From positions 1 to 64,000 of the forward strand of contig CAIWMU010000141.1 in the NCBI GenBank assembly GCA_903913865.1: a DNA stretch of 64,000 bases, given 5' to 3'. Shown here one piece after another: positions 8,917 to 19,631 of this stretch (positions within the stretch are counted from its first letter, which is position 1; every line of letters starts with the position of its first letter). Position numbers and translations under genes: made by a program. The notes below the pieces were generated by a model. That model was not told the DNA's origin and made no database searches. It was given only the letters and a program-made list of their open reading frames with translations. The stretch is from an uncultured Verrucomicrobia subdivision 3 bacterium. GTDB taxonomy: Bacteria; Verrucomicrobiota; Verrucomicrobiia; Limisphaerales; UBA8199.

Positions 8917-9044
8917 GCCCCCAATATCCCACGCACCGACACGAACCTCTTCCAACTTCCGCCAGATCCACCTTTCTTCCCCCTTCGTGGCTTCGTGGCT
9001 TCGTGTGATCCAAAAATGTCCCCAACCTCCGCCTGCGCCTCAAA
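8917..9044 (+). repeat. Dispersed repeat, copy A
   Basis: Shares with copy B (9398-9560) the blocks CCAATATCCCACGC, CTTTCTTCCCCCTTCGTGGC, the doubled TTCGTGGC unit ending in TTCGTGTGATCC, then TGTCCCCAAC and CCGCCTGCGCCTCAAA. It also shares its central part with copy C at 19506-19631. It is noncoding and probably a genome-wide repeat family. Confidence 0.75.
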
Positions 9045-9133
9045 CTTAGCGTCTTCGCGCCTTTGCGTGACCCAATTCAGCCTCACGCGAAGACGCCAAG
9101 GCGCGAAGAAGACAACCCCTGCTTTTTGAGACC

Positions 9134-9206
9134 ATGAACGAGCTAGAAATCGGAAAACACATCGTGGATACCGCAGTCAACGTGCACACCACGCTTGGCC
9201 CACCCC
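9134..9206 (+). pseudogene. GxxExxY-family gene stump 1
   Basis: ATG at 9134 gives MNELEIGKHIVDTAVNVHTT followed by LGP, which matches the N-terminal helix of GxxExxY proteins. The frame then runs into the repeat block, where the family would continue toward its GLLESVYE-like segment. Only the first 23 codons survive. Confidence 0.65.
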
Positions 9207-9294
9207 TTAGCGTCTTCGCGTCTTTGCGTGACCCATAACAGTCTCACGCGAAGACGCCAAGGCGCGAAGAAGACAAACCCTGTTTTTTGTGTCA

Positions 9295-9367
9295 ATGAAC
9301 GAGGAAGAAATCGGAAAACACATCGTGGATGCCGCAGTGAACGTGCACACCACGCTTGGCCCACCCC
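9295..9367 (+). pseudogene. GxxExxY-family gene stump 2
   Basis: ATG at 9295 gives MNEEEIGKHIVDAAVNVHTT then LGP, the same truncated start as stump 1, ending at the same base of the repeat unit. Identical truncation points show that truncation came before the tandem duplication. Confidence 0.65.
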
Positions 9368-9397: not shown

Positions 9398-9560
9398 ACT
9401 CGGCCTGCCCCATTGCCCCGACCGGAGCCCAATCCCAATATCCCACGCGACGACACAAATCCCCCCGAACTATTGGCAAATCCCCCTTTCTTCCCCCCTT
9501 CGTGGCTTCGTGGCTTCGTGTGATCCAAAAAATGTCCCCAACCCCCGCCTGCGCCTCAAA
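9398..9560 (+). repeat. Dispersed repeat, copy B (left bracket of the restriction island)
   Basis: Opens with ACTCGGCCTGCCCCATTGCC and CCGACCGGAGCCCAATCCCA, nearly identical to the last codons of hsdM and the sequence just after it (copy C, 19506-19631). It continues with the doubled TTCGTGGC block and the TGTCCCCAAC...CTCAAA tail shared with copy A. Confidence 0.8.
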
Positions 9561-9817
9561 AACCGGTCTTGATGCAGCCCTGCAAACCCGCCCCTTTTTT
9601 ACTTTTTTTGCTGCAAAGCATTCCCACCCAGTCCATTTTATGCCCCAGGTGGCTGTCGCGCTACTCGGTTCATGAAGTTGCTGTCATCAGTCTCGAAACG
9701 TGTCGCGGCCTCACAGGGGAATCTCCTGCCAGGTCCACGCTCACACGCGCCCAGGCCCAGTGGCGCAAGCCATGCCGACCCCGACGCAACTCCACCCGTG
9801 AGCCGCCACCACATCCA

Positions 9818-12800
9818 ATGAGTGCACTCGAAGCCCAACTTGAAGCACAGTTCATCGAGAAGCTTCGCAGCCTCAAATACGAATACCGCCAGGACATCCG
9901 CGACCGCGCCGCGCTGGAGAACAATTTCCGCGAAAAATTCGAGGCCCTTAACCACGTCCGCCTCACCGATGGCGAGTTCGCCCGCCTGCTCGACGAAATC
10001 ATCACCCCCGATGTCTTCACCGCCGCCAAGACCCTCCGCCAGATCAATGCCTTCACCCGCGATGACGGCACGCCGCTGAACTACACCCTGGTCAACATCC
10101 GGGACTGGTGCAAAAACACCTTCGAGGTCGTCAACCAGCTCCGCATCAACACCGACAACAGCCACCACCGTTACGACGTCCTCCTGCTCATCAACGGCGT
10201 CCCGTGCGTCCAGATCGAACTCAAAGCCCTCGGCATCAGCCCGCGCCGGGCCATGGAGCAAATCGTTGAATACAAGAACGACCCCGGCAACGGCTACACC
10301 CGGACGCTGCTTTGCTTCATGCAGCTCTTCATCGTCAGCAACCGCACGGAGACCTGGTATTTCGCCAACAACAACAGCCGCCACTTCAGCTTCAACGCCG
10401 ACGAACGCTTCCTGCCCATCTATCAGTTTGCCTCCGAGGATAACAAAAAAATCACACACCTCGACAGCTTCGCCGAAACCTTCCTCGTCAAATGCACGCT
10501 GGGCCACGCCATCAGCCGCTACATGGTGCTCATCGCCAGTGAGCAAAAGCTGATGATGATGCGCCCATATCAGACCTATGCGGTCAAGGGCATCGTCGCT
10601 TTCATCCACCAGGACTGCGGCAACGGCTTCATCTGGCACACCACCGGCAGCGGCAAGACTCTCACCTCCTTCAAGGCCTCCACCCTGCTCAAGGACAATC
10701 CCGACATCCATAAATGCGTCTTCGTCGTGGACCGCAAGGACCTCGACCGCCAGACGCGTGAGGAGTTCAACCGCTTCCAGGAGGGCTGCGTCGAGGAAAA
10801 CACCAACACCGCCGCCCTCGTGCGCCGCCTGCTCTCCGAGGACTACGCCGACAAGGTCATCGTCACCACCATCCAAAAACTCGGCCTGGCTCTGGATGAA
10901 AGCAGCAGGCGCAACAAACAGAAAAAAAAGAACGACCAGCCGACCTACAAGGAGCAGTTGGCGCCGCTCCGCGACAAGCGCATCGTCTTCATCTTTGACG
11001 AGTGCCACCGCTCCCAGTTCGGGGAGAACCACAAGGCCATCAAGGAATTCTTCCCCAAAGCCCAGCTCTTCGGCTTCACCGGCACCCCCATCTTCGAGGA
11101 AAACGCCACCACCCAGAAGATCGAGGACCAGCAGGCCTCCATGCGGACCACCGAGGACCTCTTCCAGGAGCAGCTCCACGCCTACACCATCACCCACGCC
11201 ATTGAGGACGAAAACGTCCTCCGCTTCCACGTGGACTATTACAAGCCGGAGGAGGATGGGGCCCTGAGGGAAGGAGCAGTTTATACCAAACCGGCAATCA
11301 TCGAAGCCATTCTGAGCAAGCACGATGCCGCCACCGGGGGCCGCAAGTTCAATGCCCTCCTTGCCACGGCCTCCATCAATGATGCCATTGGCTATTATGA
11401 ACAGTTCAAGACGCATCAAGTCGCGAAGCAACTGGATGACCCGTCCTTTCAGCCCCTGAATATCGCCTGCGTCTTTTCCCCCCCGGCTCAACTTGCCGAA
11501 ACTCCGGAGAGCAGGAGGGACATCGAGCAACTCGCGGCCGACCTCGAACAGGAGAAGGCCGACAACGAAATCGAGCCGGAAAAGAAAATGGCCGCGCTCA
11601 GGGTCATCATTGCTGAATACAACCAGAGGTTCGGAACCAACCACACCCCCGGCGAGTTCGACCTCTACTATCAGGATGTGCAAAAGCGCATCAAGGATCA
11701 GCAGTGGCCCAACGCCGATTTCCCCCACGCCCAAAAAATCGACATCACCATCGTGGTGGACATGCTCCTCACCGGTTTCGATTCCAAATACCTCAACACG
11801 CTCTACGTCGATAAGAATCTCAAGCACCACGGCTTGATTCAGGCCTTCTCCCGCACCAACCGCATCCTGAATGGCACCAAACCCTACGGCAACATCCTCG
11901 ACTTCCGCCAGCAGCAGGAGGCCGTCAATGCCGCCATCGCCCTGTTCTCCGGCGAGAAAACCGCCGAACAGGCCCGCGAAATCTGGCTCGTGGACCAGGC
12001 TCCCGTCGTCATCCAGAAACTCGAGACTGCCATGCGGAAGCTGGGCGGCTTCTTGAAATCCCAGGGCCTCGACTGCGCCCCCTCCGCCGTCCCCAATCTC
12101 AAGGGGGACGATGCCCGCGCTGCCTTCATCAACCACTTCAAGGAGGTCCAGCGCCTCAAAACCCAGCTCGACCAATACACCGACCTCACCGGGGAGAACA
12201 AACAGGCCATCGAACAGGTCCTCCCACGGGAAAACCACCTCGGCTTCCGCAGTGCCTACCTCGAGACCGCCAAACGCCTCAAAGCCAGGCAGGCCCGGAC
12301 CGGCGACCAGCCGGACCCCGGCGTGGATCAGGTCGATTTCGAGTTCGTCCTCTTTGCCTCCGCCGTCATCGATTACGACTACATCATGGGCCTCATCACC
12401 CGCTTCTCCCAGCAGAAGCCCGGCAAACAGAAGATGACCCGCGACCAGCTCATCGGCCTCATCCAGTCCGATGCCAAGTTCATGGAGGACCGCGACGACA
12501 TCGCCGCCTACATCAACACCCTCAAAGCGGGCGAAGGCCTCAGCGAAACCGCCATCCGCGATGGCTTCACCCGCTTCCGGGCGGAAAAAGATGCCGCCGA
12601 ACTCGCCGCCATCGCCTCCAGACACAGGCTGACCACCGCCGCCCTCCAAACCTTCGTGGAGGACATCCTGCTCCGCATGATCTTCGATGGAGACAAGCTC
12701 AGCGACCTCTTCTCCCCGCTCGATCTGGGCTGGAAAGCCCGCACCGGGATGGAACTCGCCCTGATGAAAGACCTCCACCCCCTCCTCACCAAACGCGCCC

Positions 12801-12841
12801 AGGGGCGTGAAATCTCTGGTCTGAGCGCCTATGAGCAGTAA
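9818..12841 (+). CDS. hsdR: Type I restriction endonuclease subunit R (HsdR)
   Basis: The ATG at 9818 (MSALEAQLEAQFIEKLRSLK) gives 1007 residues, typical for HsdR. The open frame extends 83 codons upstream, but that part lies in repeat-derived sequence. The N-terminal PD-(D/E)XK nuclease core is visible near residue 125-140 (DVLLLINGVPCVQIELKALG). The superfamily 2 motor follows: Walker A TTGSGKT near 276, DECHRSQFG box near 394, and GFTGTP near 418. A coiled C-terminal region contacts HsdM. HsdR translocates unmethylated DNA and cuts it when HsdR2M2S complexes stall. It is the first gene of a five-gene operon and overlaps hsdS by 11 bases. Confidence 0.95.
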   Translation: MSALEAQLEAQFIEKLRSLKYEYRQDIRDRAALENNFREKFEALNHVRLTDGEFARLLDEIITPDVFTAAKTLRQINAFTRDDGTPLNYTLVNIRDWCKNTFEVVNQLRINTDNSHHRYDVLLLINGVPCVQIELKALGISPRRAMEQIVEYKNDPGNGYTRTLLCFMQLFIVSNRTETWYFANNNSRHFSFNADERFLPIYQFASEDNKKITHLDSFAETFLVKCTLGHAISRYMVLIASEQKLMMMRPYQTYAVKGIVAFIHQDCGNGFIWHTTGSGKTLTSFKASTLLKDNPDIHKCVFVVDRKDLDRQTREEFNRFQEGCVEENTNTAALVRRLLSEDYADKVIVTTIQKLGLALDESSRRNKQKKKNDQPTYKEQLAPLRDKRIVFIFDECHRSQFGENHKAIKEFFPKAQLFGFTGTPIFEENATTQKIEDQQASMRTTEDLFQEQLHAYTITHAIEDENVLRFHVDYYKPEEDGALREGAVYTKPAIIEAILSKHDAATGGRKFNALLATASINDAIGYYEQFKTHQVAKQLDDPSFQPLNIACVFSPPAQLAETPESRRDIEQLAADLEQEKADNEIEPEKKMAALRVIIAEYNQRFGTNHTPGEFDLYYQDVQKRIKDQQWPNADFPHAQKIDITIVVDMLLTGFDSKYLNTLYVDKNLKHHGLIQAFSRTNRILNGTKPYGNILDFRQQQEAVNAAIALFSGEKTAEQAREIWLVDQAPVVIQKLETAMRKLGGFLKSQGLDCAPSAVPNLKGDDARAAFINHFKEVQRLKTQLDQYTDLTGENKQAIEQVLPRENHLGFRSAYLETAKRLKARQARTGDQPDPGVDQVDFEFVLFASAVIDYDYIMGLITRFSQQKPGKQKMTRDQLIGLIQSDAKFMEDRDDIAAYINTLKAGEGLSETAIRDGFTRFRAEKDAAELAAIASRHRLTTAALQTFVEDILLRMIFDGDKLSDLFSPLDLGWKARTGMELALMKDLHPLLTKRAQGREISGLSAYEQ

Positions 12842-14105
12842 ACCCAAAACAACTGGAAAAATGGAAGCCGGCAAAAACGCGCTGGTGCCGAAACTGCGGT
12901 TTCCGGAGTTTCGGGGGACGGAAGGGTGGAAAGAGGAGCCCCTTAAAGCGGCAGCCGAAATCAATCCGGCAAACAGTGGGCTGCCGGAATCATTCGTCTA
13001 TATCGACCTTGAGTCAGTTGATGCAGGGGCGTTGAAAGCAAAGGAACGTATTTCCCGAGTCGGTGCTCCAAGCCGTGCTCAAAGGCTCGTTGAACTCGGT
13101 GACATTATTTACCAAGTCGTCCGCCCCTACCAACGCAACAATCTGCTTTGCGAGTTCGATGACGATGAAAACTACGTTGCATCCACGGGCTATGCCCAAC
13201 TGAGGGCAAAAGGCAGCAATCGGTTTTTGTATCAGAGCATCCACACCGATTCCTTTGTCGGAAGGGTCACCGCGAATTGCACGGGCTCCAACTATCCAGC
13301 AATCAATTCATCGGACTTGGCGGAGATACATCTGCCGGTTCCACCTACCCTGCCCGAACAACAGAAAATCGCCGAATGCCTGAGTTCGGTGGACGAGCTG
13401 ATCGCGGCGCACGCCCGGAGACTGGACGCGCTAAAGACCCATAAAAAAGGGCTGATGCAGCAGCTTTTCCCCCGCGAAGGCGAAACCCAACCCCTCCTCC
13501 GCTTCCCCGAATTCCAAAACGCCGGGGAGTGGGAGGTTCGGACGATTGGCAAGATGTTTAGCCTCATTAACGGGTGCGCCTTCAAGCCTGAAGATTGGCA
13601 ACCAAGCGGGACTCCAATCATCCGCATTCAGAATCTGAACGATCCGTCCGCTGAGTTCAATTACTCCCAAGAACCAGTGCCAGAACGAAACCGCGTTGAA
13701 CCAGGAGATTTACTCTTTGCTTGGTCTGGAACGTTGGGTTCGTCTTTCGGCGCTCGTATTTGGAATGGACCGTCTGGTGTCTTGAATCAGCATATTTTCA
13801 AGGTTCTGATGGATGAGCAGCATATCACATTGCAGTTCGCGTTACTGGTCCTTGCGAGGGTTGAAGAAGAAATTGCGAGACGGACGCATGGATTCAAAGC
13901 CTCGTTTGTTCACGTCAAGAAGTCGGACCTGGTTAAAGTTGAGATGCTACTGCCATCCGTCCCCGAACAACAACGCATCGCCGGGTGCCTGAGCAGCCTC
14001 GACGCCCTAATCACCGCCGAGACGCAAAAGCTCAAAGCCCTCAAGACACACAAGAAAGGGCTGATGCAACAGCTTTTCCCATCCCCGGAGGCGAATGAAG
14101 GATAG
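12831..14105 (+). CDS. hsdS: Type I restriction specificity subunit S (HsdS)
   Basis: A protein of 424 residues with the standard two-part build. Target recognition domain 1 covers about 15-170 and domain 2 about 222-372. Each is followed by a near-duplicate conserved helix region, LPEQQKIAECLSSVDELI...LMQQLFP (about 174-217) and VPEQQRIAGCLSSLDALI...LMQQLFP (about 375-417). The two domains read the two halves of a bipartite DNA target. They are unlike each other, so an asymmetric target is expected. The start overlaps the end of hsdR, and the next gene begins 24 bases after its stop. The conserved regions' close match to each other is normal for the family. Confidence 0.93.
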   Translation: MSSKPKTTGKMEAGKNALVPKLRFPEFRGTEGWKEEPLKAAAEINPANSGLPESFVYIDLESVDAGALKAKERISRVGAPSRAQRLVELGDIIYQVVRPYQRNNLLCEFDDDENYVASTGYAQLRAKGSNRFLYQSIHTDSFVGRVTANCTGSNYPAINSSDLAEIHLPVPPTLPEQQKIAECLSSVDELIAAHARRLDALKTHKKGLMQQLFPREGETQPLLRFPEFQNAGEWEVRTIGKMFSLINGCAFKPEDWQPSGTPIIRIQNLNDPSAEFNYSQEPVPERNRVEPGDLLFAWSGTLGSSFGARIWNGPSGVLNQHIFKVLMDEQHITLQFALLVLARVEEEIARRTHGFKASFVHVKKSDLVKVEMLLPSVPEQQRIAGCLSSLDALITAETQKLKALKTHKKGLMQQLFPSPEANEG

Positions 14106-14129
14106 AAGTTTCCACAACCTGAACTTACG

Positions 14130-16757
14130 ATGAGCAAGATGACTTCAACCAATGACAAACAGTTCCCTCGAGGCGCGGAATGGGTCCGCGTGGACTTCCA
14201 TCTGCACACCAAGGCAGACAAGGAGTTCAAATACAGCCTGGACGAAAACTACTACAACAGCGCCTACGTCGATGCGCTGGAGAAGGCGGGCATCCGTTTG
14301 GGCGTCATCACCAACCACAACAAGTTCGATTTCGACGAGTTCAAATCCCTCCGCGCCACCGCCCGGAAGAAGAAAATCGGGCTTTTACCCGGTGTGGAGC
14401 TTTCCGTGAATGATGGGGCAAACGGGATTCATACGCTTGTAGTGTTCTCCGATGCCTGGCTGGAGAATGGGCAGGACAACATCAATCCATTCCTCACGGT
14501 GGCATTCGAAGGAAAAACCCCGAGCCAATATGAGCAGGAGAATGGTCAGTCATCTCTCAGTCTCATTGATACGATCAAGAAACTCGAAGGTTACCACAGA
14601 GACTTTTTCCTCGTCTTTGCCCATGTGGAGCAGTCCAGCGGGATATGGATCGAACTTGATGGAGGGCGCATTACCGATCTCGGGGAGAACGAGTTCTTCC
14701 GTCAGAGGACGCTTGGTTTCCAGAAAGTCCGCACCCACGACGGCGCAGGCAAAGGCAAACCTTGCCGCGCGCTAGTCCAGCAGTGGCTGAATGGCTGGTA
14801 TCCCGCCGAAGTCGAGGGAAGCGATCCGAAAGCCATCGAAGAGATCGGAAAGGGCAAGTCCAGTTATCTCAAGCTCGGAGAGCTTTCGTTCGAGGCGGCG
14901 AAGTTTGCGCTCTTCGATTACGCCCACCGAGTTCGCTCTGAACTGCCGGAACCCCGAAAGGCGGTTCTATTACGCCAGGTGCGTTTCAATGGAGGAGCCT
15001 TGGATGGATTGGCCGTGCCATTTTCCCCGTCCCTGAACTGCCTGATCGGCCCGAGAGGGAATGGCAAGTCGGCGGTAATCGAGTGCCTGCGTCATGCCTT
15101 GGGCTTCCGCGAGGTGTCGGATGAGCGATACAAGTCCGGGCTCGTCGAGCGGATGCTGTCTCCAGCTGGCAAGGTGGTGGTGGATACTGTGGATGAGTTC
15201 GGGCGCGAAGTCCGGATCGAACGCGAAGGCACTGGTCAGCCTTCGGTGTATTTGGATGGCGTCTATCGCGACATCTCTCCCGGCTCAATCCTGAAAGATA
15301 TCCTCTACTTCGGTCAGAAGGACCTTTCGACCCGCTCGGAGTCGTTCGACGAGAGCTTTCTCGACAAGCTGCTGGCGGATCGACTCCATCCCAAGCCGCA
15401 GGAAGAGGCGGCGCTCATCGAAGGCGTGCGCCAGGCGGCCCGACAACTGAAGGAGACGCTGGAGGCCACTGAGAAGATCGCCGCATTGCAAAAGGAGAAG
15501 AACGAAATGGACGCACAGCTTCAGGTCTTCACGGACAAGGGCGTGGACAAGAAGCTCGCTGACATGACCCTCTTTGATGGGGACCGCCAGGCGATTGTCG
15601 CATGGCAGCAGGCATTGAAGGAACTGGGCACGACTCTCAAGGAGTCAGCGGACTGGGGCGATGCGGATGCGGCATTCCCCGTGCTGAAATCCAAGCGGAG
15701 CGAACCGATTGCCGCCGACCTTACCGCAGCCAAGGCAAAGTCCGACGAGGCCAAAATAACTGCTCAGGCAGCGCTCCAAACCCTCCGGGATGCATTTGCC
15801 CCTGTGGGCGAGGCTCTTCAAAAGCTGGCACCGGTGCAGGACGAGATGAAACAGGAGGTGGCCGAACTTCAGAAGACTCTGAATGAACCCCAGCTCGATC
15901 TCGAGCTGTTCCGCAAGAAGAAGTCCCGGCTTGATCAGCTGGTGAAGCTGCTGGCTGCAGGTGCGCAACGCGCCAAAACCGAGCAGGCGGCGCGTGACCT
16001 GCTCGGCGCGGCAGTCAACAAGCTGCACGATTTCTGGAGGGAAAGGTTCACGGAGCGTGAAGCCGAAGTGCGTCGTCTCGAATCGGAACTTCCACAGGAA
16101 ATCCGTCTTCAGACAGCCTTCAAAGGCAAGCGTAGCGCGTTCGGTGAGTTCCTGCGCTCGAAGTTCCGGGGAAGCGGTTTGCAGGGACCATCCTACGACA
16201 CGATGCAGGACGCGTTTGTGGATGGCCGAGAGCTGTATCAAGCGCGCACAGACCTGGAGAAGCATCTGAGCGAAACCGCTGCTGTGAAGGTGCGCTCCAC
16301 GTTGCTGGAGCATCTGTCGGACTTTCTGAGTTTCCGCGCACCAGATGAAACGGTTATCCTTTTCCATCAGAAGCCGCTGGGTGAATATTCCCTCGGGCAG
16401 CGGGCCACCGTGATTCTGCATATTCTCATGCACCTTCAGCGTCATCCTGTCATCTTGATCGACCAGCCGGAAGACGATCTGGACAACGAGACCCTTTACA
16501 GCCACTTCATCCGCCAACTGCTTGAGCGCAAGGAGCTGACGCAGTTTGTTTTCGCCACCCACAACCCAAACATCCCGGTGCTCGGCGATGCGGAGCAGGC
16601 CATCGTCTGCCGGAAGGACGGCGAGAAGTTTTCGTTCGACCACGGGAGCATCGACGACAAAGTCATTCAACAACGCATCGTCACCGTGATGGAAGGTGGT
16701 GAGGACGCATTCCGGCGCAGAAAGGAAATTTATCAATTATGGAAGAGTTCGAACTAA
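14130..16757 (+). CDS. TrlF-like PHP-domain / SMC-type AAA ATPase inside the Type I operon
   Basis: A protein of 875 residues. The N-terminal PHP domain shows metal-ligand motifs HLH (24-26), TNHN (61-64), GVE (88-90) and FAHVE (163-167). It is followed by an ABC/SMC-like ATPase with Walker A GPRGNGKS (307-314), a long coiled-coil middle (about 415-690), Walker B VILIDQPEDDLDNE (about 771-785) and FATHNPN switch. PHP domains are phosphoesterases or nucleases; the ATPase part resembles RecN/SMC proteins. This matches the TrlF family of AAA-like ATPases, which I recall as frequent partners of Type I restriction genes. Role is inferred as accessory defence or control of restriction. It overlaps the next gene by 19 bases. 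A second ATG at 14139 is a possible start. Confidence 0.85.
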   Translation: MSKMTSTNDKQFPRGAEWVRVDFHLHTKADKEFKYSLDENYYNSAYVDALEKAGIRLGVITNHNKFDFDEFKSLRATARKKKIGLLPGVELSVNDGANGIHTLVVFSDAWLENGQDNINPFLTVAFEGKTPSQYEQENGQSSLSLIDTIKKLEGYHRDFFLVFAHVEQSSGIWIELDGGRITDLGENEFFRQRTLGFQKVRTHDGAGKGKPCRALVQQWLNGWYPAEVEGSDPKAIEEIGKGKSSYLKLGELSFEAAKFALFDYAHRVRSELPEPRKAVLLRQVRFNGGALDGLAVPFSPSLNCLIGPRGNGKSAVIECLRHALGFREVSDERYKSGLVERMLSPAGKVVVDTVDEFGREVRIEREGTGQPSVYLDGVYRDISPGSILKDILYFGQKDLSTRSESFDESFLDKLLADRLHPKPQEEAALIEGVRQAARQLKETLEATEKIAALQKEKNEMDAQLQVFTDKGVDKKLADMTLFDGDRQAIVAWQQALKELGTTLKESADWGDADAAFPVLKSKRSEPIAADLTAAKAKSDEAKITAQAALQTLRDAFAPVGEALQKLAPVQDEMKQEVAELQKTLNEPQLDLELFRKKKSRLDQLVKLLAAGAQRAKTEQAARDLLGAAVNKLHDFWRERFTEREAEVRRLESELPQEIRLQTAFKGKRSAFGEFLRSKFRGSGLQGPSYDTMQDAFVDGRELYQARTDLEKHLSETAAVKVRSTLLEHLSDFLSFRAPDETVILFHQKPLGEYSLGQRATVILHILMHLQRHPVILIDQPEDDLDNETLYSHFIRQLLERKELTQFVFATHNPNIPVLGDAEQAIVCRKDGEKFSFDHGSIDDKVIQQRIVTVMEGGEDAFRRRKEIYQLWKSSN

Positions 16758-17920
16758 GAAACCAAATCCTCCTTGGAGAAGACAGCACGCGGCAGTTCAA
16801 GCGCGAACCGTCGGCTGATGCCAAAATGGCGGGCGAAATCGTCGCCTTCGCCAACAGCGGCGGAGGGCGCATTTTCGTCGGGGTTGAGAAAGATGGCTCC
16901 ATCGCCGGACTAACTGGCGAAGAGGCAGAGAAGGTCGGCGAAGATATGGCAAAAATTGCTTGGGACAGTGTTCGTCCGCCCTTTTCCATTCTATCGAAAT
17001 CTGTTCCAACAGGTGATGGCATCGTTGTTGTTATCGAGATTTCCGAAGGAGCATCCAAACCCTATTGCGACAGCAAGGGCGTCTATTGGGTGAAGAATGG
17101 GCCGGACAAACGCCGGGTGCAGAGCCCCGAAGAGCTGGCGCGATTGTTTCAATCAGGCGAAAAACTGTATGCGGAAAGCCAAGTCGTCGCTGCTTCAACT
17201 CTGGAGGACTTCGACCATGAACGTTTCGAGCGTTTCTATGAGGCCAAATACTCTGAGACTCCGCCAAGTCGAAGCGAGGAGGGCGAGGCTTACCAGAGGA
17301 CCTTGGAAAATCTGGAGTTGGTGGATTCAGGCCGTGTGACGGTGGCTGGTTTGCTTCTGTTCGGAGAACGCAAGCGTTTGCCCGTTCTGCTACCGGAAAT
17401 GAAAATCGATGCGATTTGGTTCAAAGGCACCGAACGTGCATCTACCGAATGGCACGATCAGCGCACCATCTCCGGCACCTTGGCTGAGCAATACGATGAG
17501 GGCATGGGATTCTTGAAGCGATGGAACGTCCGAATCCAAGGCGAGGGATCATTCAACCAAACAGGGACACTTGAGATTCCTGAAACCGTATTCGAGGAGC
17601 TTCTGGTGAATGCTCTGATTCACCGCGACTACTTCATCAAGGATTCCATCAAGCTGTTTATCTTTGATGATCGAATCGAAATCCGCAGTCCTGGCAAACT
17701 GCCGAATAGTCTGACCGTCGATCAGATTCGCCGAGGCGTTCGGCGGAGTCGCAATGTGTTACTGGCGTCGTTTGCCCCTGATGTCCTCAACTTCCGTGGC
17801 GTAGGCAGCGGGATTGTTCGCGCACTGAAAGCCTGGCATTCCATTTCCTGGGTGAATGACACCGAAAGCGAAGAGGTTCTCGCTACGATCCAGTTGAATC
17901 CAAGCGCGCCAACCGCATGA
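16739..17920 (+). CDS. AlbA_2 (Schlafen-type) / HATPase_c_4 protein in the restriction operon
   Basis: A protein of 393 residues. The N-terminal AlbA_2 domain shows the sequence around TRQFKREPS, then IVAFANSGGGRIFVGVEKDG (about 36-55) and a later KPYCDSKGVYWVKNGPDKR segment. Near residue 287 the ATPase-like motif FEELLVNALIHRDYF identifies the HATPase_c_4 half. Such proteins are annotated as putative RecG-related or RNA-binding regulators; some Schlafen-type relatives act in defence. Its ATG lies inside the end of the TrlF-like gene, and its stop overlaps hsdM by four bases (ATGA), so expression is tied to the restriction operon. Whether it controls restriction or is a separate effector cannot be read from the sequence. 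Confidence 0.85.
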   Translation: MEEFELRNQILLGEDSTRQFKREPSADAKMAGEIVAFANSGGGRIFVGVEKDGSIAGLTGEEAEKVGEDMAKIAWDSVRPPFSILSKSVPTGDGIVVVIEISEGASKPYCDSKGVYWVKNGPDKRRVQSPEELARLFQSGEKLYAESQVVAASTLEDFDHERFERFYEAKYSETPPSRSEEGEAYQRTLENLELVDSGRVTVAGLLLFGERKRLPVLLPEMKIDAIWFKGTERASTEWHDQRTISGTLAEQYDEGMGFLKRWNVRIQGEGSFNQTGTLEIPETVFEELLVNALIHRDYFIKDSIKLFIFDDRIEIRSPGKLPNSLTVDQIRRGVRRSRNVLLASFAPDVLNFRGVGSGIVRALKAWHSISWVNDTESEEVLATIQLNPSAPTA

Positions 17921-19530
17921 CCACATCCAACCAACAACAACTGGGCAGCACCCTCTGGGATATCGCCGACAAACTCCGTGGGTCGATGAACGCGGACGAT
18001 TTCCGCGACTACATGCTCTCCTTCCTCTTCCTGCGCTACCTCTCCGATAACTACGAGACGGCCACCAGGAAGGAACTGGGCAAAGATTACCCCGCCATTC
18101 CTGCGGGCGACTCCCGCGTGCCCTTGGCTCTCTGGTATGCCAAAAACCAGGCCGACATTCCGGAATTCGAAAAGCAGATGCGCCGCAAGGTGCACTACGT
18201 CATCCAGCCCCAGCACCTCTGGAGCAGCATCGCCAGTCTGGCCCGGACCCAAAGCGGCGACCTCCTCAGCACCCTCCAGGACGGCTTCAAATACATCGAA
18301 ACCGAATCCTTCGAAAGCACCTTCCAGGGGCTCTTCTCCGAGATCAACCTCGGCTCGGACAAGCTCGGAAGAACTTACACCGACCGCAACACCAAGCTCT
18401 GCGGCATCATCCAGAAGATCGCCGAGGGTTTGGCCGAGTTTTCCACCGACATTGACGCCCTGGGCGACGCCTATGAATACCTGATCGGCCAGTTCGCCGC
18501 CGGGTCTGGCAAGAAGGCGGGGGAGTTCTACACCCCGCAACAGATTTCCGACATCCTCTCCGCCATCGTCACCCTCGACAGCCAGGAACCCAAAACCGGC
18601 CCCCGGAAGCGCCTCGATAGCGTTCTGGACTTCGCCTGCGGCTCCGGCTCCCTCCTCCTGAACATCCGCAAGCGGATCAACAAGGCAGGTGGAACCATCG
18701 GCAAAATTTTCGGCCAGGAAAACAACATCACCACCTACAACCTCGCCCGCATGAACATGCTCCTGCACGGGGTGAAGGATTCCGAGTTCGAGATTTACCA
18801 CGGCGACACCCTGCTCAACGAATGGGACATCCTTCGCGAGTTGAACCCCGCGAAGAAACCCACCTTCGACGCCGTCGTCGCAAATCCCCCCTTCAGCCTC
18901 CGCTGGGAGCCCACCGACGCCCTGGCCGACGACGTGCGCTTCAAAAGCCACGGCCTCGCCCCCAAATCCGCCGCCGATTTCGCCTTCCTGCTGCACGGCT
19001 TCCACTTCCTCAAGGAACAAGGCGTCATGGCCATCATTCTGCCCCACGGCGTTCTCTTTCGAGGCGGCGCCGAGGAACGCATCCGCACCAAGTTGCTCAA
19101 AGATGGTCACATTGACACCGTGATCGGCCTGCCCGCGAACCTCTTCTACTCCACCGGCATCCCCGTCTGCATTCTCGTGCTCAAGAAGTGCAAGAAGCCC
19201 GACGACGTCCTCTTCATCAACGCCGCCGAGCACTTCGAGAAGGGCAAACGCCAGAACCGCCTTCTCGACGCGCACATCGCCAAAATCGTCGAGACCTACC
19301 AGTTCCGGAAAGAGGAGGAACGATACTCCAGGCGCGTCTCCATGGACGAAATCGCCAGGAACGACTTCAACCTCAACATCTCCCGCTACATCAGCACCGC
19401 TCAGGATGAGGCAGAGATCGACCTGTCGGCGACTCACGGCCAGTTGGGGCAAATAGAGAGCGCGATCCAGAAGGCAAAGACCAAACACAACGAATTCCTG
19501 AAAGAACTCGGCCTGCCCCCATTGCCCTGA
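17917..19530 (+). CDS. hsdM: Type I restriction-modification DNA methyltransferase (HsdM)
   Basis: A protein of 537 residues. The N-terminal HsdM helical domain (about 10-150) precedes an adenine N6-methyltransferase core with S-adenosylmethionine motif DFACGSGSLLL (238-248) and catalytic motif IV NPPF (323-326, in VVANPPFSLRW). HsdM with HsdS methylates the target on both strands and protects host DNA. It is the last gene of the operon, which is unusual since hsdM often leads; here hsdS, the TrlF-like and the AlbA_2 genes separate it from hsdR. Its final codons and the following bases are part of a repeat also found upstream of hsdR (copy B). Confidence 0.95.
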   Translation: MTTSNQQQLGSTLWDIADKLRGSMNADDFRDYMLSFLFLRYLSDNYETATRKELGKDYPAIPAGDSRVPLALWYAKNQADIPEFEKQMRRKVHYVIQPQHLWSSIASLARTQSGDLLSTLQDGFKYIETESFESTFQGLFSEINLGSDKLGRTYTDRNTKLCGIIQKIAEGLAEFSTDIDALGDAYEYLIGQFAAGSGKKAGEFYTPQQISDILSAIVTLDSQEPKTGPRKRLDSVLDFACGSGSLLLNIRKRINKAGGTIGKIFGQENNITTYNLARMNMLLHGVKDSEFEIYHGDTLLNEWDILRELNPAKKPTFDAVVANPPFSLRWEPTDALADDVRFKSHGLAPKSAADFAFLLHGFHFLKEQGVMAIILPHGVLFRGGAEERIRTKLLKDGHIDTVIGLPANLFYSTGIPVCILVLKKCKKPDDVLFINAAEHFEKGKRQNRLLDAHIAKIVETYQFRKEEERYSRRVSMDEIARNDFNLNISRYISTAQDEAEIDLSATHGQLGQIESAIQKAKTKHNEFLKELGLPPLP

Positions 19531-19631
19531 CCGGAGCCCAATCCCAATATCCCACGCGACGACACGAATCTCCTCGAACTTGTGACGGATCCACCTTTCT
19601 TCCCCCTTCGTGGCTTCGTGGCTTCGTGTGA
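19506..19631 (+). repeat. Dispersed repeat, copy C (right bracket of the restriction island)
   Basis: Begins inside hsdM at CTCGGCCTGCCCCCATTGCC, runs through the hsdM stop, and ends with the doubled TTCGTGGC unit and TTCGTGTGAG. It is nearly identical to copy B over about 60 bases (ACCGGAGCCCAATCCCAATA then TCCCACGCGACGACAC) and again over the TTCGTGGC part. The rest of the gap to the ThrH gene holds only a weak hairpin around 19650-19676. Confidence 0.8.

What the first reader, a model, noticed from the sequence alone, without database searches (positions are those of the whole stretch)
9818..19530. Type I restriction operon carrying a PHP-ATPase and an AlbA_2 protein between hsdS and hsdM
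Seen: five genes in order R-S-(PHP+SMC-like ATPase)-(AlbA_2+HATPase)-M with overlaps of 11, 19 and 4 bases, so all are expressed as one unit. Known: HsdRMS needs none of the two extra genes; PHP domains are phosphoesterases/nucleases, SMC-like ATPases sense DNA ends, and some AlbA_2/Schlafen proteins act in defence or regulation. Inference: a combined system in which the pair either restrains or replaces restriction when HsdRMS is inhibited (for example by phage anti-restriction), or forms an independent second barrier. The unusual last position of hsdM would let restriction parts be made before methylase, so the pair may also protect the host.
Basis: partly seen in the sequence, partly recalled or inferred. 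Interest (0 to 1): 0.72.

Follow-up and report, generated by a model that had tools for sequence, protein, structure and literature searches.

The report
Plug-in TrlF–TrlG pair inside restriction operon
A bacterial DNA-restriction operon carries, between its own genes, a two-gene module (a DNA-clamp-like ATPase fused to a nuclease-like domain, plus a growth-arrest protein) that turns up repeatedly inside several unrelated kinds of anti-phage systems, probably as a second line of defence.

Summary
In detail: hsdR–hsdS–PHP/SMC gene–AlbA_2/HATPase gene–hsdM, one direction, overlaps as stated. The extra genes are a known pair. The first passes NCBIfam's TrlF cut-off. The second is TrlG, whose substitutions abolish growth arrest in the published Photorhabdus Temperature Restricting Locus (9 of 11 substituted sites identical here). 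In the best 80 TrlF loci, TrlG overlaps TrlF in at least 65. A restriction or BREX-type gene is the immediate co-directional neighbour in 28 (type I 17, PglX-type 6, type III 4, IIG-like 1), in differing orders; the tree needs at least 18 changes. So the pair is a recurrent plug-in of modification-based immunity, not a type I subunit. TrlF predicts as an Endonuclease-Q-like PHP domain on an SMC/Rad50 head. TrlG predicts as a Schlafen-like domain on a GHKL ATPase, but its second catalytic Glu is Gln in 53 of 53. TrlG divergence tracks the TrlF ATPase (rho 0.93), while the PHP domain has been swapped. Best reading: an autonomous DNA-sensing, growth-arresting second layer co-expressed with HsdRMS. 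A defence role is untested. New variant of a known kind.

The parts
9818..12841 (+). hsdR, type I restriction subunit, EcoR124 (type IC-like) architecture
   Evidence: HSDR_N, SWI2_SNF2/ResIII, T1R_D3-like, EcoR124_C; TIGR00348 380 bits over cut-off 284.55
12831..14105 (+). hsdS, specificity subunit with two target-recognition repeats
   Evidence: PF01420, 2 stretches; PADLOC Specificity_I E=4.1e-81
14130..16757 (+). trlF, PHP domain fused to SMC/Rad50-type ATPase
   Evidence: NF045780 TrlF family 468.9 bits over cut-off 350; AF2 model pLDDT 85.2
14163..14945 (+). TrlF PHP domain (residues 12-272), Endonuclease Q-like fold; ligands H24 H26 D30 H63 E90 H101 H165 D232; last canonical His replaced by K234
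   Evidence: VIA-align Z 17.9 to EndoQ 5zb8, 219 residues, rmsd 3.3; conservation in 45 TrlFs; assignment of the ligands to PHP motifs is recalled
14961..16745 (+). TrlF ATPase head split by a coiled coil (residues 278-400, 401-735, 736-872): Walker A, SLGQR signature, DQPEDDLD
   Evidence: Z 21.5 to SMC head 5xei, up to 19.9 to Rad50; motif conservation in 45 TrlFs
16739..17920 (+). trlG, Schlafen AlbA_2 + GHKL ATPase-like protein, growth-arrest effector candidate
   Evidence: PF04326 14-127, PF13749 303-366; same architecture and nearly the same residue numbering as Photorhabdus TrlG
16778..17119 (+). TrlG AlbA_2 domain; E14 and Q19 (in place of the second Schlafen Glu) invariant in 53 sequences
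   Evidence: Z about 10 to SLFN14/13/12/11/5, 9.7 to SAMD9
17396..17905 (+). TrlG GHKL (histidine-kinase/SpoIIAB-like) domain
   Evidence: VIA-align Z 9.7 to SpoIIAB
17917..19530 (+). hsdM, type I adenine methyltransferase, last gene of the operon
   Evidence: TIGR00497 391.5 bits over cut-off 242.75; HsdM_N + N6_Mtase
9398..9523 (+). left copy of a direct repeat that brackets the operon; resembles the hsdM 3' end
   Evidence: 90.6% identical to 19506-19631; among the matches scored in the own genome (40 of 59 candidates) none elsewhere exceeds about 60 bases
19506..19631 (+). right copy of the bracketing repeat; begins inside the last codons of hsdM

Best explanation
The inserted pair is trlF-trlG, an autonomous mobile module that is recurrently co-expressed with modification-based defence systems. 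TrlF is a DNA-sensing clamp: an SMC/Rad50-type ATPase head with a short coiled coil, carrying an Endonuclease-Q/Ppl-like PHP phosphoesterase as a swappable nuclease. TrlG, a Schlafen-AlbA_2/GHKL protein, is the growth-arrest effector tied to the TrlF ATPase half. Most likely working: HsdRMS is the first barrier. DNA in an abnormal state (ends, replication or recombination intermediates, phage DNA that escaped or was cut by restriction) engages the TrlF head, its PHP domain processes that DNA, and the ATPase state releases TrlG, which halts growth, so the infected cell stops supporting the phage. Shown here: gene identity, operon geometry, recurrence beside type I, type III and BREX-type genes, predicted folds, TrlG-ATPase co-divergence. 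Shown by others: TrlG-dependent growth arrest in Photorhabdus. Inferred: the trigger, the PHP nuclease activity, that TrlF controls TrlG, and the anti-phage role.
For: TrlF is over its curated cut-off. Published TRL: TrlG has the same two domains at nearly the same positions, substitutions throughout it relieve arrest, and no trlF mutants were seen. All 13 published wild-type residues are found at those numbers in two Photorhabdus TrlGs, and 9 of 11 substituted sites are identical in the window. TrlG lies directly after TrlF in 65 of 80 loci with overlaps of 4-31 bases. A restriction or BREX-type gene is immediately adjacent in 28 of 80 loci (18 of 40 with both flanks) against 22 of 329 other ORFs in the same loci; 16 of 80 are flanked on both sides by parts of one system. 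Predicted folds: EndoQ PHP Z 17.9, SMC/Rad50 Z about 20; Schlafen about 10, GHKL 9.7. Ppl, a PHP exonuclease-NTPase that senses 3' ends and nucleotide depletion, is the closest characterised protein by layout (passage; partial model matches). TrlG tracks the ATPase (rho 0.928; partial 0.909, 0 of 500 permutations as high) and hardly the PHP domain (partial 0.198, 5 of 500).
Against: No defence assay for TrlFG was found in anything I could read; the only phenotype is heat-induced growth arrest. 42 of 75 labelled TrlF rows in the tree have no restriction gene as immediate neighbour. The second Schlafen catalytic Glu is Gln in 53 of 53 TrlGs, so RNase activity is doubtful. The last PHP ligand His is Lys in 44 of 45. 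TrlF occurs without TrlG in several loci with ample downstream sequence, e.g. L082, L090, L103, L134, so TrlG is not always its output. Co-divergence of TrlG with the ATPase half may only reflect their being adjacent on the DNA with a recombination point upstream.
Confidence: 0.5

Rival explanations
1. Guard of the restriction system (PrrC/PARIS logic): TrlF senses that HsdRMS, a type III enzyme or BREX has been inhibited by a phage anti-restriction protein, and TrlG then arrests the cell. In this reading the trigger is loss or inhibition of the partner, not DNA state.
For: Insertion between subunits of unrelated systems; order M-S-F-G-R in L122 (and S-F-G-R in L124; L086 with wider gaps) puts the pair in the slot that prrC is recalled to hold, and prrC is embedded in a type IC locus (passage), the subtype of the window HsdR. 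Ocr fully suppressed BREX in one study (section 14 read) and inhibits type I. The PARIS AriA model matches the TrlF ATPase (E 8.3e-10). The E. coli operon also carries an AAA_13 ATPase.
Against: No single inhibitor reaches all three partners: neither ArdA, ArdB nor Ocr affected the type III system EcoPI, and ArdA and ArdB did not affect BREX. Stand-alone TrlFG (Photorhabdus L119/L133, Pseudomonas plasmid L051) has no system to guard nearby. Heat alone is reported to trigger arrest. No contact surface to Hsd proteins was tested.
Confidence: 0.22
2. General stress or addiction growth-arrest module (as the Temperature Restricting Locus suggests) that hitchhikes in defence operons and has no direct anti-phage role.
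For: The published phenotype is growth arrest at 36 C with induction by temperature; TrlF relatives occur in 235 plasmid records, so the genes are mobile.
Against: 18 of 40 fully visible loci place the unit directly against restriction or BREX-type genes versus 22 of 329 neighbouring ORFs; a stress module would not need repeated insertion inside unrelated defence operons.
Confidence: 0.14
3. Regulator or extra subunit of HsdRMS that restrains restriction until methylation is complete (one of the first reader's options).
For: Tight coupling with hsdM (4-base overlap) in the window.
Against: The same pair sits with type III and BREX-type enzymes of other make-up, and alone; HsdR needs M2S anyway (recalled); trlF is retained where hsdR and hsdS are reduced to a fused remnant (L062).
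Confidence: 0.06
4. Ordinary defence-island clustering: co-location without functional link.
For: Other genes also neighbour the pair (a NACHT protein beside L064, DUF2397 beside L105, T5orf172 proteins beside L063 and L069).
Against: Same-strand insertion between parts of one system in 16 of 80 loci, in different orders and phyla; the labels need at least 18 changes on the tree, 14 forced by starred branches.
Confidence: 0.05

Closest known systems
TrlF/TrlG of the Photorhabdus Temperature Restricting Locus (PMC7554251; abstract and 12 passages seen)
   Same: Same two proteins in the same order; TrlG AlbA_2 14-128 + HATPase_c_4 298-365; the same residues are kept (9 of 11 identical in the window)
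   Different: There an operon with a small HTH gene trlR; here no trlR, and placed between hsdS and hsdM. In the passages seen, restriction genes are mentioned only for Y. ruckeri pYR3 (two small hsdM-annotated genes between trlR and trlF)
Ppl (PHP exonuclease + NTPase, single-gene defence; passage in PMC12904381)
   Same: PHP + ATPase layout; the TrlF C-terminal ATPase matches the Ppl models
   Different: 130.7 bits against a cut-off of 1000, so not a member; Ppl is single-gene, while TrlF is usually paired with TrlG
prrC in the EcoprrI type IC locus; rloA-rloB in C. jejuni hsd loci (passages)
   Same: Extra genes lodged within a type I locus; rloAB are two slightly overlapping genes numbered between hsdR and hsdS
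   Different: Different proteins; PrrC is an anticodon nuclease; rloAB have no inferred function in that paper
PARIS (AriA/AriB)
   Same: ABC-type ATPase paired with a growth-stopping effector; senses an anti-restriction protein (passages)
   Different: TrlG is not AriB-like: no AriB hit among its PADLOC matches and no Toprim hit in Pfam; only the ATPase resembles AriA
Schlafen-histidine-kinase-wHTH backup effectors of BREX (PMC12839542, part 1 of section 35 read)
   Same: Schlafen domain + minimal histidine-kinase fold next to BREX core genes
   Different: No wHTH was found in TrlG (393 aa); the 573-aa L058 protein with a Fic-like C-terminal domain is a separate protein. TrlG comes with TrlF, which that paper does not name (0 hits for TrlF or PHP in its main text)
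Endonuclease Q
   Same: The only PHP fold among the 50 entries listed for TrlF; lower-ranked PHP folds were not shown
   Different: No SMC-type ATPase (recalled); a DNA-repair enzyme described in Pyrococcus furiosus (search listing)

Membership tests
Type I R-M (type IC-like) | HsdR nuclease-helicase, HsdM methylase and two-TRD HsdS together | tested here: met
   TIGR00348 and TIGR00497 over cut-off, EcoR124_C 5e-65
Type I R-M (type IC-like) | Restriction and methylation activity | not testable with these tools
   needs an assay
TrlF family (NF045780) | Score over curated cut-off 350 | tested here: met
   468.9 bits over positions 1-944 of 944
TrlG of the TRL | AlbA_2 + HATPase_c_4 at matching positions, directly after trlF | tested here: met
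TrlG of the TRL | causes growth arrest | not testable with these tools
   published for Photorhabdus only
TRL operon (trlR-trlF-trlG) | small HTH gene trlR upstream of trlF | tested here: not met
   the gene upstream of trlF is hsdS; the small gene upstream in L119 is HTH_73
Schlafen-type RNase | Schlafen AlbA_2 fold | tested here: met
   predicted model, Z about 10 to five SLFN proteins and 9.7 to the SAMD9 tRNase domain
Schlafen-type RNase | Glu-Glu-Asp active site | tested here: not met
   E14 53/53, but the second position is Gln 53/53; Asp at position 51 in 36/53 and at 52 in 39/53; triad as in PMC11221667 (passages)
Ppl | NF042955 cut-off 1000 bits | tested here: not met
   130.7 bits
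PrrC/RloC | AAA_13-type ATPase with anticodon nuclease domain | tested here: not met
   no AAA_13 hit to TrlF or TrlG at E <= 0.01
PARIS | AriA plus AriB (Toprim) effector | tested here: not met
   AriA model matches the ATPase at 8.3e-10; no AriB hit among the three matches of TrlG
MADS | MAD2-type methylase over its cut-off within the mad operon | tested here: not met
   HsdM 57.3 bits against 720; mad3 matches the ATPase part of TrlF at 7.2e-16
PHP / Endonuclease Q nuclease | PHP fold with a full metal-ligand set | tested here: inconclusive
   fold Z 17.9 to EndoQ; 8 ligands kept, ninth His is Lys in 44 of 45; no Pfam PHP hit

The most novel reading that the evidence does not exclude
TrlFG is a universal plug-in of modification-dependent immunity. 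One core (SMC-type ATPase sensor + TrlG arrest effector that evolve together) has been inserted many times between the subunits of type I, type III and BREX systems. It carries an exchangeable EndoQ-like PHP nuclease, so that host systems gain a second, differently triggered layer without sharing any protein part with it.
Probability: 0.33. Interest if true: 0.8.

Novelty: new variant of a known kind. Interest (0 to 1): 0.6.

Why it matters
If true, type I, type III and BREX operons share a common add-on layer that type I annotation treats as stray genes, and a locus published as a temperature switch is really (or also) an immunity effector. The E. coli version of the pair, present in 38 of 5426 complete genomes and seen in one of them beside Tn7-like transposition genes, makes this directly testable in a laboratory strain.

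Tried and rejected
PADLOC listed no model named for TrlF or TrlG: the best 25 of 36 matches of TrlF and all 3 of TrlG were seen, and they were other families, mostly partial ATPase or domain matches.

Schlafen RNase as a firm assignment was rejected because of the invariant Gln at the second Glu. Two distant relatives, L034 and L043, read Glu at that column.

A shared DNA-mimic inhibitor as the common trigger was considered. A read section of PMC10149784 shows that Ocr blocks BREX but that ArdA, ArdB and Ocr do not affect the type III system EcoPI. I had first taken the abstract as more favourable. The guard rival was lowered from 0.27 to 0.22 for this, and the stress and clustering rivals were raised by 0.01 each.

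Circular excised element: L057 is a 10.8-kb contig with the whole operon at 98.9% identity and repeats at both ends, but there is no exact terminal overlap, so a circle is not supported.

First tree labels misassigned L080, L089 and L127; they were corrected after PADLOC and recounted. Set aside there as unlabelled: 16 of 91 rows, namely those with under 1.5 kb upstream and no restriction neighbour, plus L054 and L108. Some 'none' rows have hsd genes further off (L083, L093; L088 has an hsdS 376 bases upstream), and my profiles may miss divergent systems.

The 80 loci are the 80 best of at least 565 confirmed, so they lean towards the window's relatives. The phylum sample (387 genomes, 16 over cut-off including the window's own) gave, in the 15 other genomes, type I adjacency in 2 (L031, L044), a PglX gene in 1 (L039) and a type III Mod gene in 1 (L036); several of those contigs are short.

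The 15 of 80 loci scored as without TrlG include contig ends (L059, L088, L089) and one start-call miss (L114, TrlG present), so 65 is a lower bound. In L073 the TrlG ORF is short. pYR3 (L055) was first taken as stand-alone; PMC7554251 reports two small hsdM-annotated genes there, which neither the PLSDB table nor my profiles showed, so it is not counted as stand-alone.

'BREX' rests on PADLOC PglX/PglXI matches. A further BREX-type gene was confirmed only in L099 (PglZ, Pfam) and L104 and L078 (BrxHI). PglZ or BrxH was not checked in L080 and L089 (short contigs), and L091 shows only a helicase fragment.

Literature: in the listings I saw no paper on TrlFG as a restriction-operon module apart from the pYR3 remark in PMC7554251; several listings were capped. 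Not held, so not excluded: the 2020 NAR ABC-ATPase classification (title and DOI recalled), the Menshen paper, the bacterial Schlafen preprint (seen only as a reference).


Full report
What is there. The five genes are present as described: hsdR 9818-12841, hsdS 12831-14105, an 875-aa PHP/SMC gene 14130-16757, a 393-aa AlbA_2/HATPase gene 16739-17920 and hsdM 17917-19530, all on the + strand, with overlaps of 11, 19 and 4 bases and one 24-base gap after hsdS. The Hsd proteins carry the full type I set with an EcoR124-type (IC) C-terminus. ARAGORN found no tRNA in the window.

Who the two extra genes are. The first scores 468.9 bits against NCBIfam NF045780 (TrlF family, cut-off 350) over the whole model. 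The second has the architecture of TrlG, the protein encoded beside TrlF in the Photorhabdus Temperature Restricting Locus. In that paper (PMC7554251; abstract and 12 passages seen), spontaneous substitutions throughout TrlG, but none in the larger trlF, relieve growth arrest at 36 C; deletion of the locus does the same and the operon in trans restores arrest. Some isolates had no trlG change. Two Photorhabdus TrlGs fetched here (L119, L133) show the published wild-type residue at all 13 listed positions, and the window protein has the identical residue at 9 of the 11 substituted sites. A36, P322, N339 and G358 (window numbering) are invariant in 53 aligned TrlGs.

How often it sits in restriction operons. 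A genome-collection scan with an alignment of ten TrlFs kept the best 80 of at least 565 confirmed loci, so this sample leans towards near relatives. TrlG follows directly in 65 of 80, with overlaps of 19 (24 loci), 22 (18), 13 (16) or, in seven loci, 4, 10, 28 or 31 bases. In 17 of 80 a type I gene is the immediate co-directional neighbour; one of these, L062, is a remnant. Pfam and PADLOC scans of the other neighbours found a PglX/PglXI-type methylase directly upstream in six (L078, L080, L089, L091, L099, L104), a type III Mod gene in four (L095, L127, L130, L132) and a type IIG-like enzyme in one (L100), so 28 of 80 in all. Of the 40 loci with at least 1.5 kb on both sides, 18 have such a neighbour, against 22 of 329 other ORFs (at least 150 aa, at least 1.5 kb from both ends, neither TrlFG nor restriction genes) in the same loci. 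In 16 of 80 the unit is flanked on both sides by parts of one system; in three of these one side is a BREX-type helicase, and in L072 TrlG is missing. Orders differ: R-S-F-G-M (window, L057, L058), R-F-G-S-AAA-M (E. coli plasmid L052, Klebsiella plasmid L050, L065-L067, L098; L073 with a short TrlG ORF), M-S-F-G-R (L122; L086 with wider gaps; S-F-G-R in L124), Mod-F-G-Res (L095), PglXI-F-G-BrxH (L104, L078), PglX-F-G-PglZ (L099). On a TrlF tree of 91 rows, 75 could be labelled (42 with no restriction gene as immediate neighbour). The type I label needs at least 9 changes (6 forced by starred branches), and any restriction neighbour versus none at least 18 (14 forced). The tree was the quick kind, has long branches, and such counts cannot tell gains from losses.

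A second sample. In 387 genomes of the window's phylum, 16 have a TrlF over the cut-off, the window's own among them. In the other 15, a type I gene adjoins TrlF in two (L031, L044), a PglX gene in one (L039) and a type III Mod gene in one (L036).

Standing alone and standing on after loss. The pair also occurs without any detected restriction gene beside it: Pseudomonas plasmid L051 and Photorhabdus L119 and L133. In Yersinia ruckeri pYR3 (L055) I detected none, but the paper reports two small hsdM-annotated genes upstream. TrlF occurs without TrlG in L053 and L056, and on a plasmid with brxL some 7 kb upstream (L054). In L062, a relative of the window operon, the start of hsdR runs in frame into the end of hsdS (a 190-aa remnant), followed by an open trlF and a trlG cut by the contig end. 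Together these argue that TrlFG does not need HsdRMS.

What the proteins look like. TrlG (model pLDDT 86.1) matches an uncharacterised Corynebacterium protein over its length (3lmm, Z 20.0, rmsd 14.7). Residues 1 to about 114 match the NMR domain 2kyy (Z 11.6) and human Schlafens 14, 13, 12, 11 and 5 at Z about 10; residues 1-143 match the SAMD9 tRNase domain at 9.7; residues about 220-389 match SpoIIAB and histidine kinases at Z about 8-10. Of the Schlafen Glu-Glu-Asp site the first Glu is kept in 53 of 53 but the second is Gln in 53 of 53, which counts against an ordinary Schlafen RNase. TrlF (pLDDT 85.2): residues 278-859 match SMC and Rad50 heads (Z up to 21.5), and residues 17-272 match the PHP domain of Endonuclease Q (5zb8 Z 17.9, rmsd 3.3, 219 aligned; 7k30 Z 17.7) (50 entries listed). 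Eight PHP ligands are kept in 44 or 45 of 45 TrlFs (one row is gapped at the first three), but the last PHP His is Lys in 44 of 45, and the residue after the Walker B Asp is Gln in 45 of 45. The naming of these motifs is recalled.

A chimeric gene. Against the E. coli-type TrlF (L065) the window protein is 76% identical in the PHP domain but 47% in the ATPase and 19% in the coil, with TrlG 40%. Against L062 it is 49% in PHP but 89% in the ATPase and 82% in the coil, with TrlG 85%. The switch falls roughly at residues 200-280. Across 67 TrlF-TrlG pairs (2211 comparisons) TrlG distance follows the ATPase (Spearman 0.928) and coil (0.912) far more than PHP (0.481). The partial correlation with the ATPase given PHP is 0.909 (0 of 500 permutations as high); with PHP given the ATPase it is 0.198 (5 of 500). 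I read this as a sensor-effector core (ATPase + TrlG) with an exchangeable nuclease domain. Genetic linkage of adjacent segments is a simpler partial cause and was not excluded.

Mechanism. The nearest characterised protein by layout is Ppl, described in a review passage as a single-stranded-DNA 3'-5' exonuclease with PHP and NTPase domains that responds to nucleotide depletion and 3' ends. TrlF matches its models but is far below the membership cut-off. Together with the published TrlG arrest this gives my preferred model: HsdRMS acts first, abnormal or surviving phage DNA engages TrlF, and TrlG stops growth. The main rival is a guard that senses inhibition of the partner system, as PrrC and PARIS do (passages). 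Against its simplest form, Ocr blocked BREX but did not affect the type III system EcoPI, nor did ArdA or ArdB (section 14 of PMC10149784), so no one of these inhibitors is a trigger common to all partners. A restraining or subunit role for HsdRMS fits poorly with a partner list that includes unrelated enzymes.

Prior work and novelty. RefSeq already annotates these genes as TrlF and 'RNA-binding domain-containing protein' beside type I genes in E. coli: the trlFG stretch is in 38 of 5426 E. coli genomes, and in all 10 rows listed the adjoining genes are annotated as type I R and S. Extra genes lodged in type I loci are a known kind (prrC, rloAB), and Schlafen-kinase proteins beside BREX have been published. 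What I did not see in the listings of ten paper searches is the pair as a recurrent insert of type I, type III and BREX-type operons, its swapped PHP domain, or its tie to the ATPase half. Relevant papers not held may contain parts of this.

Noticed in passing
window 9398-9523 and 19506-19631 (also 8920-9366): The operon lies between about 125-bp direct repeats, 90.6% identical; the left copy resembles the 3' end of hsdM. Elsewhere in the genome only short matches (up to about 60 bases) were scored (40 of 59 candidates). Possible trace of duplication or recombination-mediated gain.
   Followed up: partly
L057:1-10446: A contig binned as Candidatus Hydrogenedentes carries the whole operon at 98.9% DNA identity to the window: recent transfer or misbinning.
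   Followed up: partly
L062:9397-13780: In-frame fusion of the start of hsdR to the end of hsdS, directly before an open trlF with a different PHP domain.
   Followed up: partly
L058:3991-5712: A second, different AlbA_2/HATPase protein with a Fic-like C-terminal domain sits between hsdR and hsdS of the same operon as trlFG. hsdM of L058 is split over two ORFs.
   Followed up: partly
L141:2724-19805: In E. coli JJ2434 the R-F-G-S-AAA-M operon lies beside TnsA-, TnsD- and other Tn7-like transposition genes, next to yhiN.
   Followed up: partly
L052:14044-15159: The extra ATPase between hsdS and hsdM of the E. coli operon matches AAA_13 (the PrrC/RloC-type ATPase; that link is recalled), so two accessory modules share one hsd operon.
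   Followed up: no
L035:7098-10890: A genome of the window's phylum carries a TrlF 87% identical to the best of two references (probably the E. coli plasmid version), with its TrlG split over two ORFs, suggesting recent transfer and decay.
   Followed up: no
L063, L069, L108 upstream of trlF: A T5orf172-domain protein is the upstream neighbour of some otherwise unlinked TrlFs: a different recurrent partner.
   Followed up: no
window 9638-12964 (-): A 1108-aa open frame runs antisense to hsdR, probably a composition effect.
   Followed up: no
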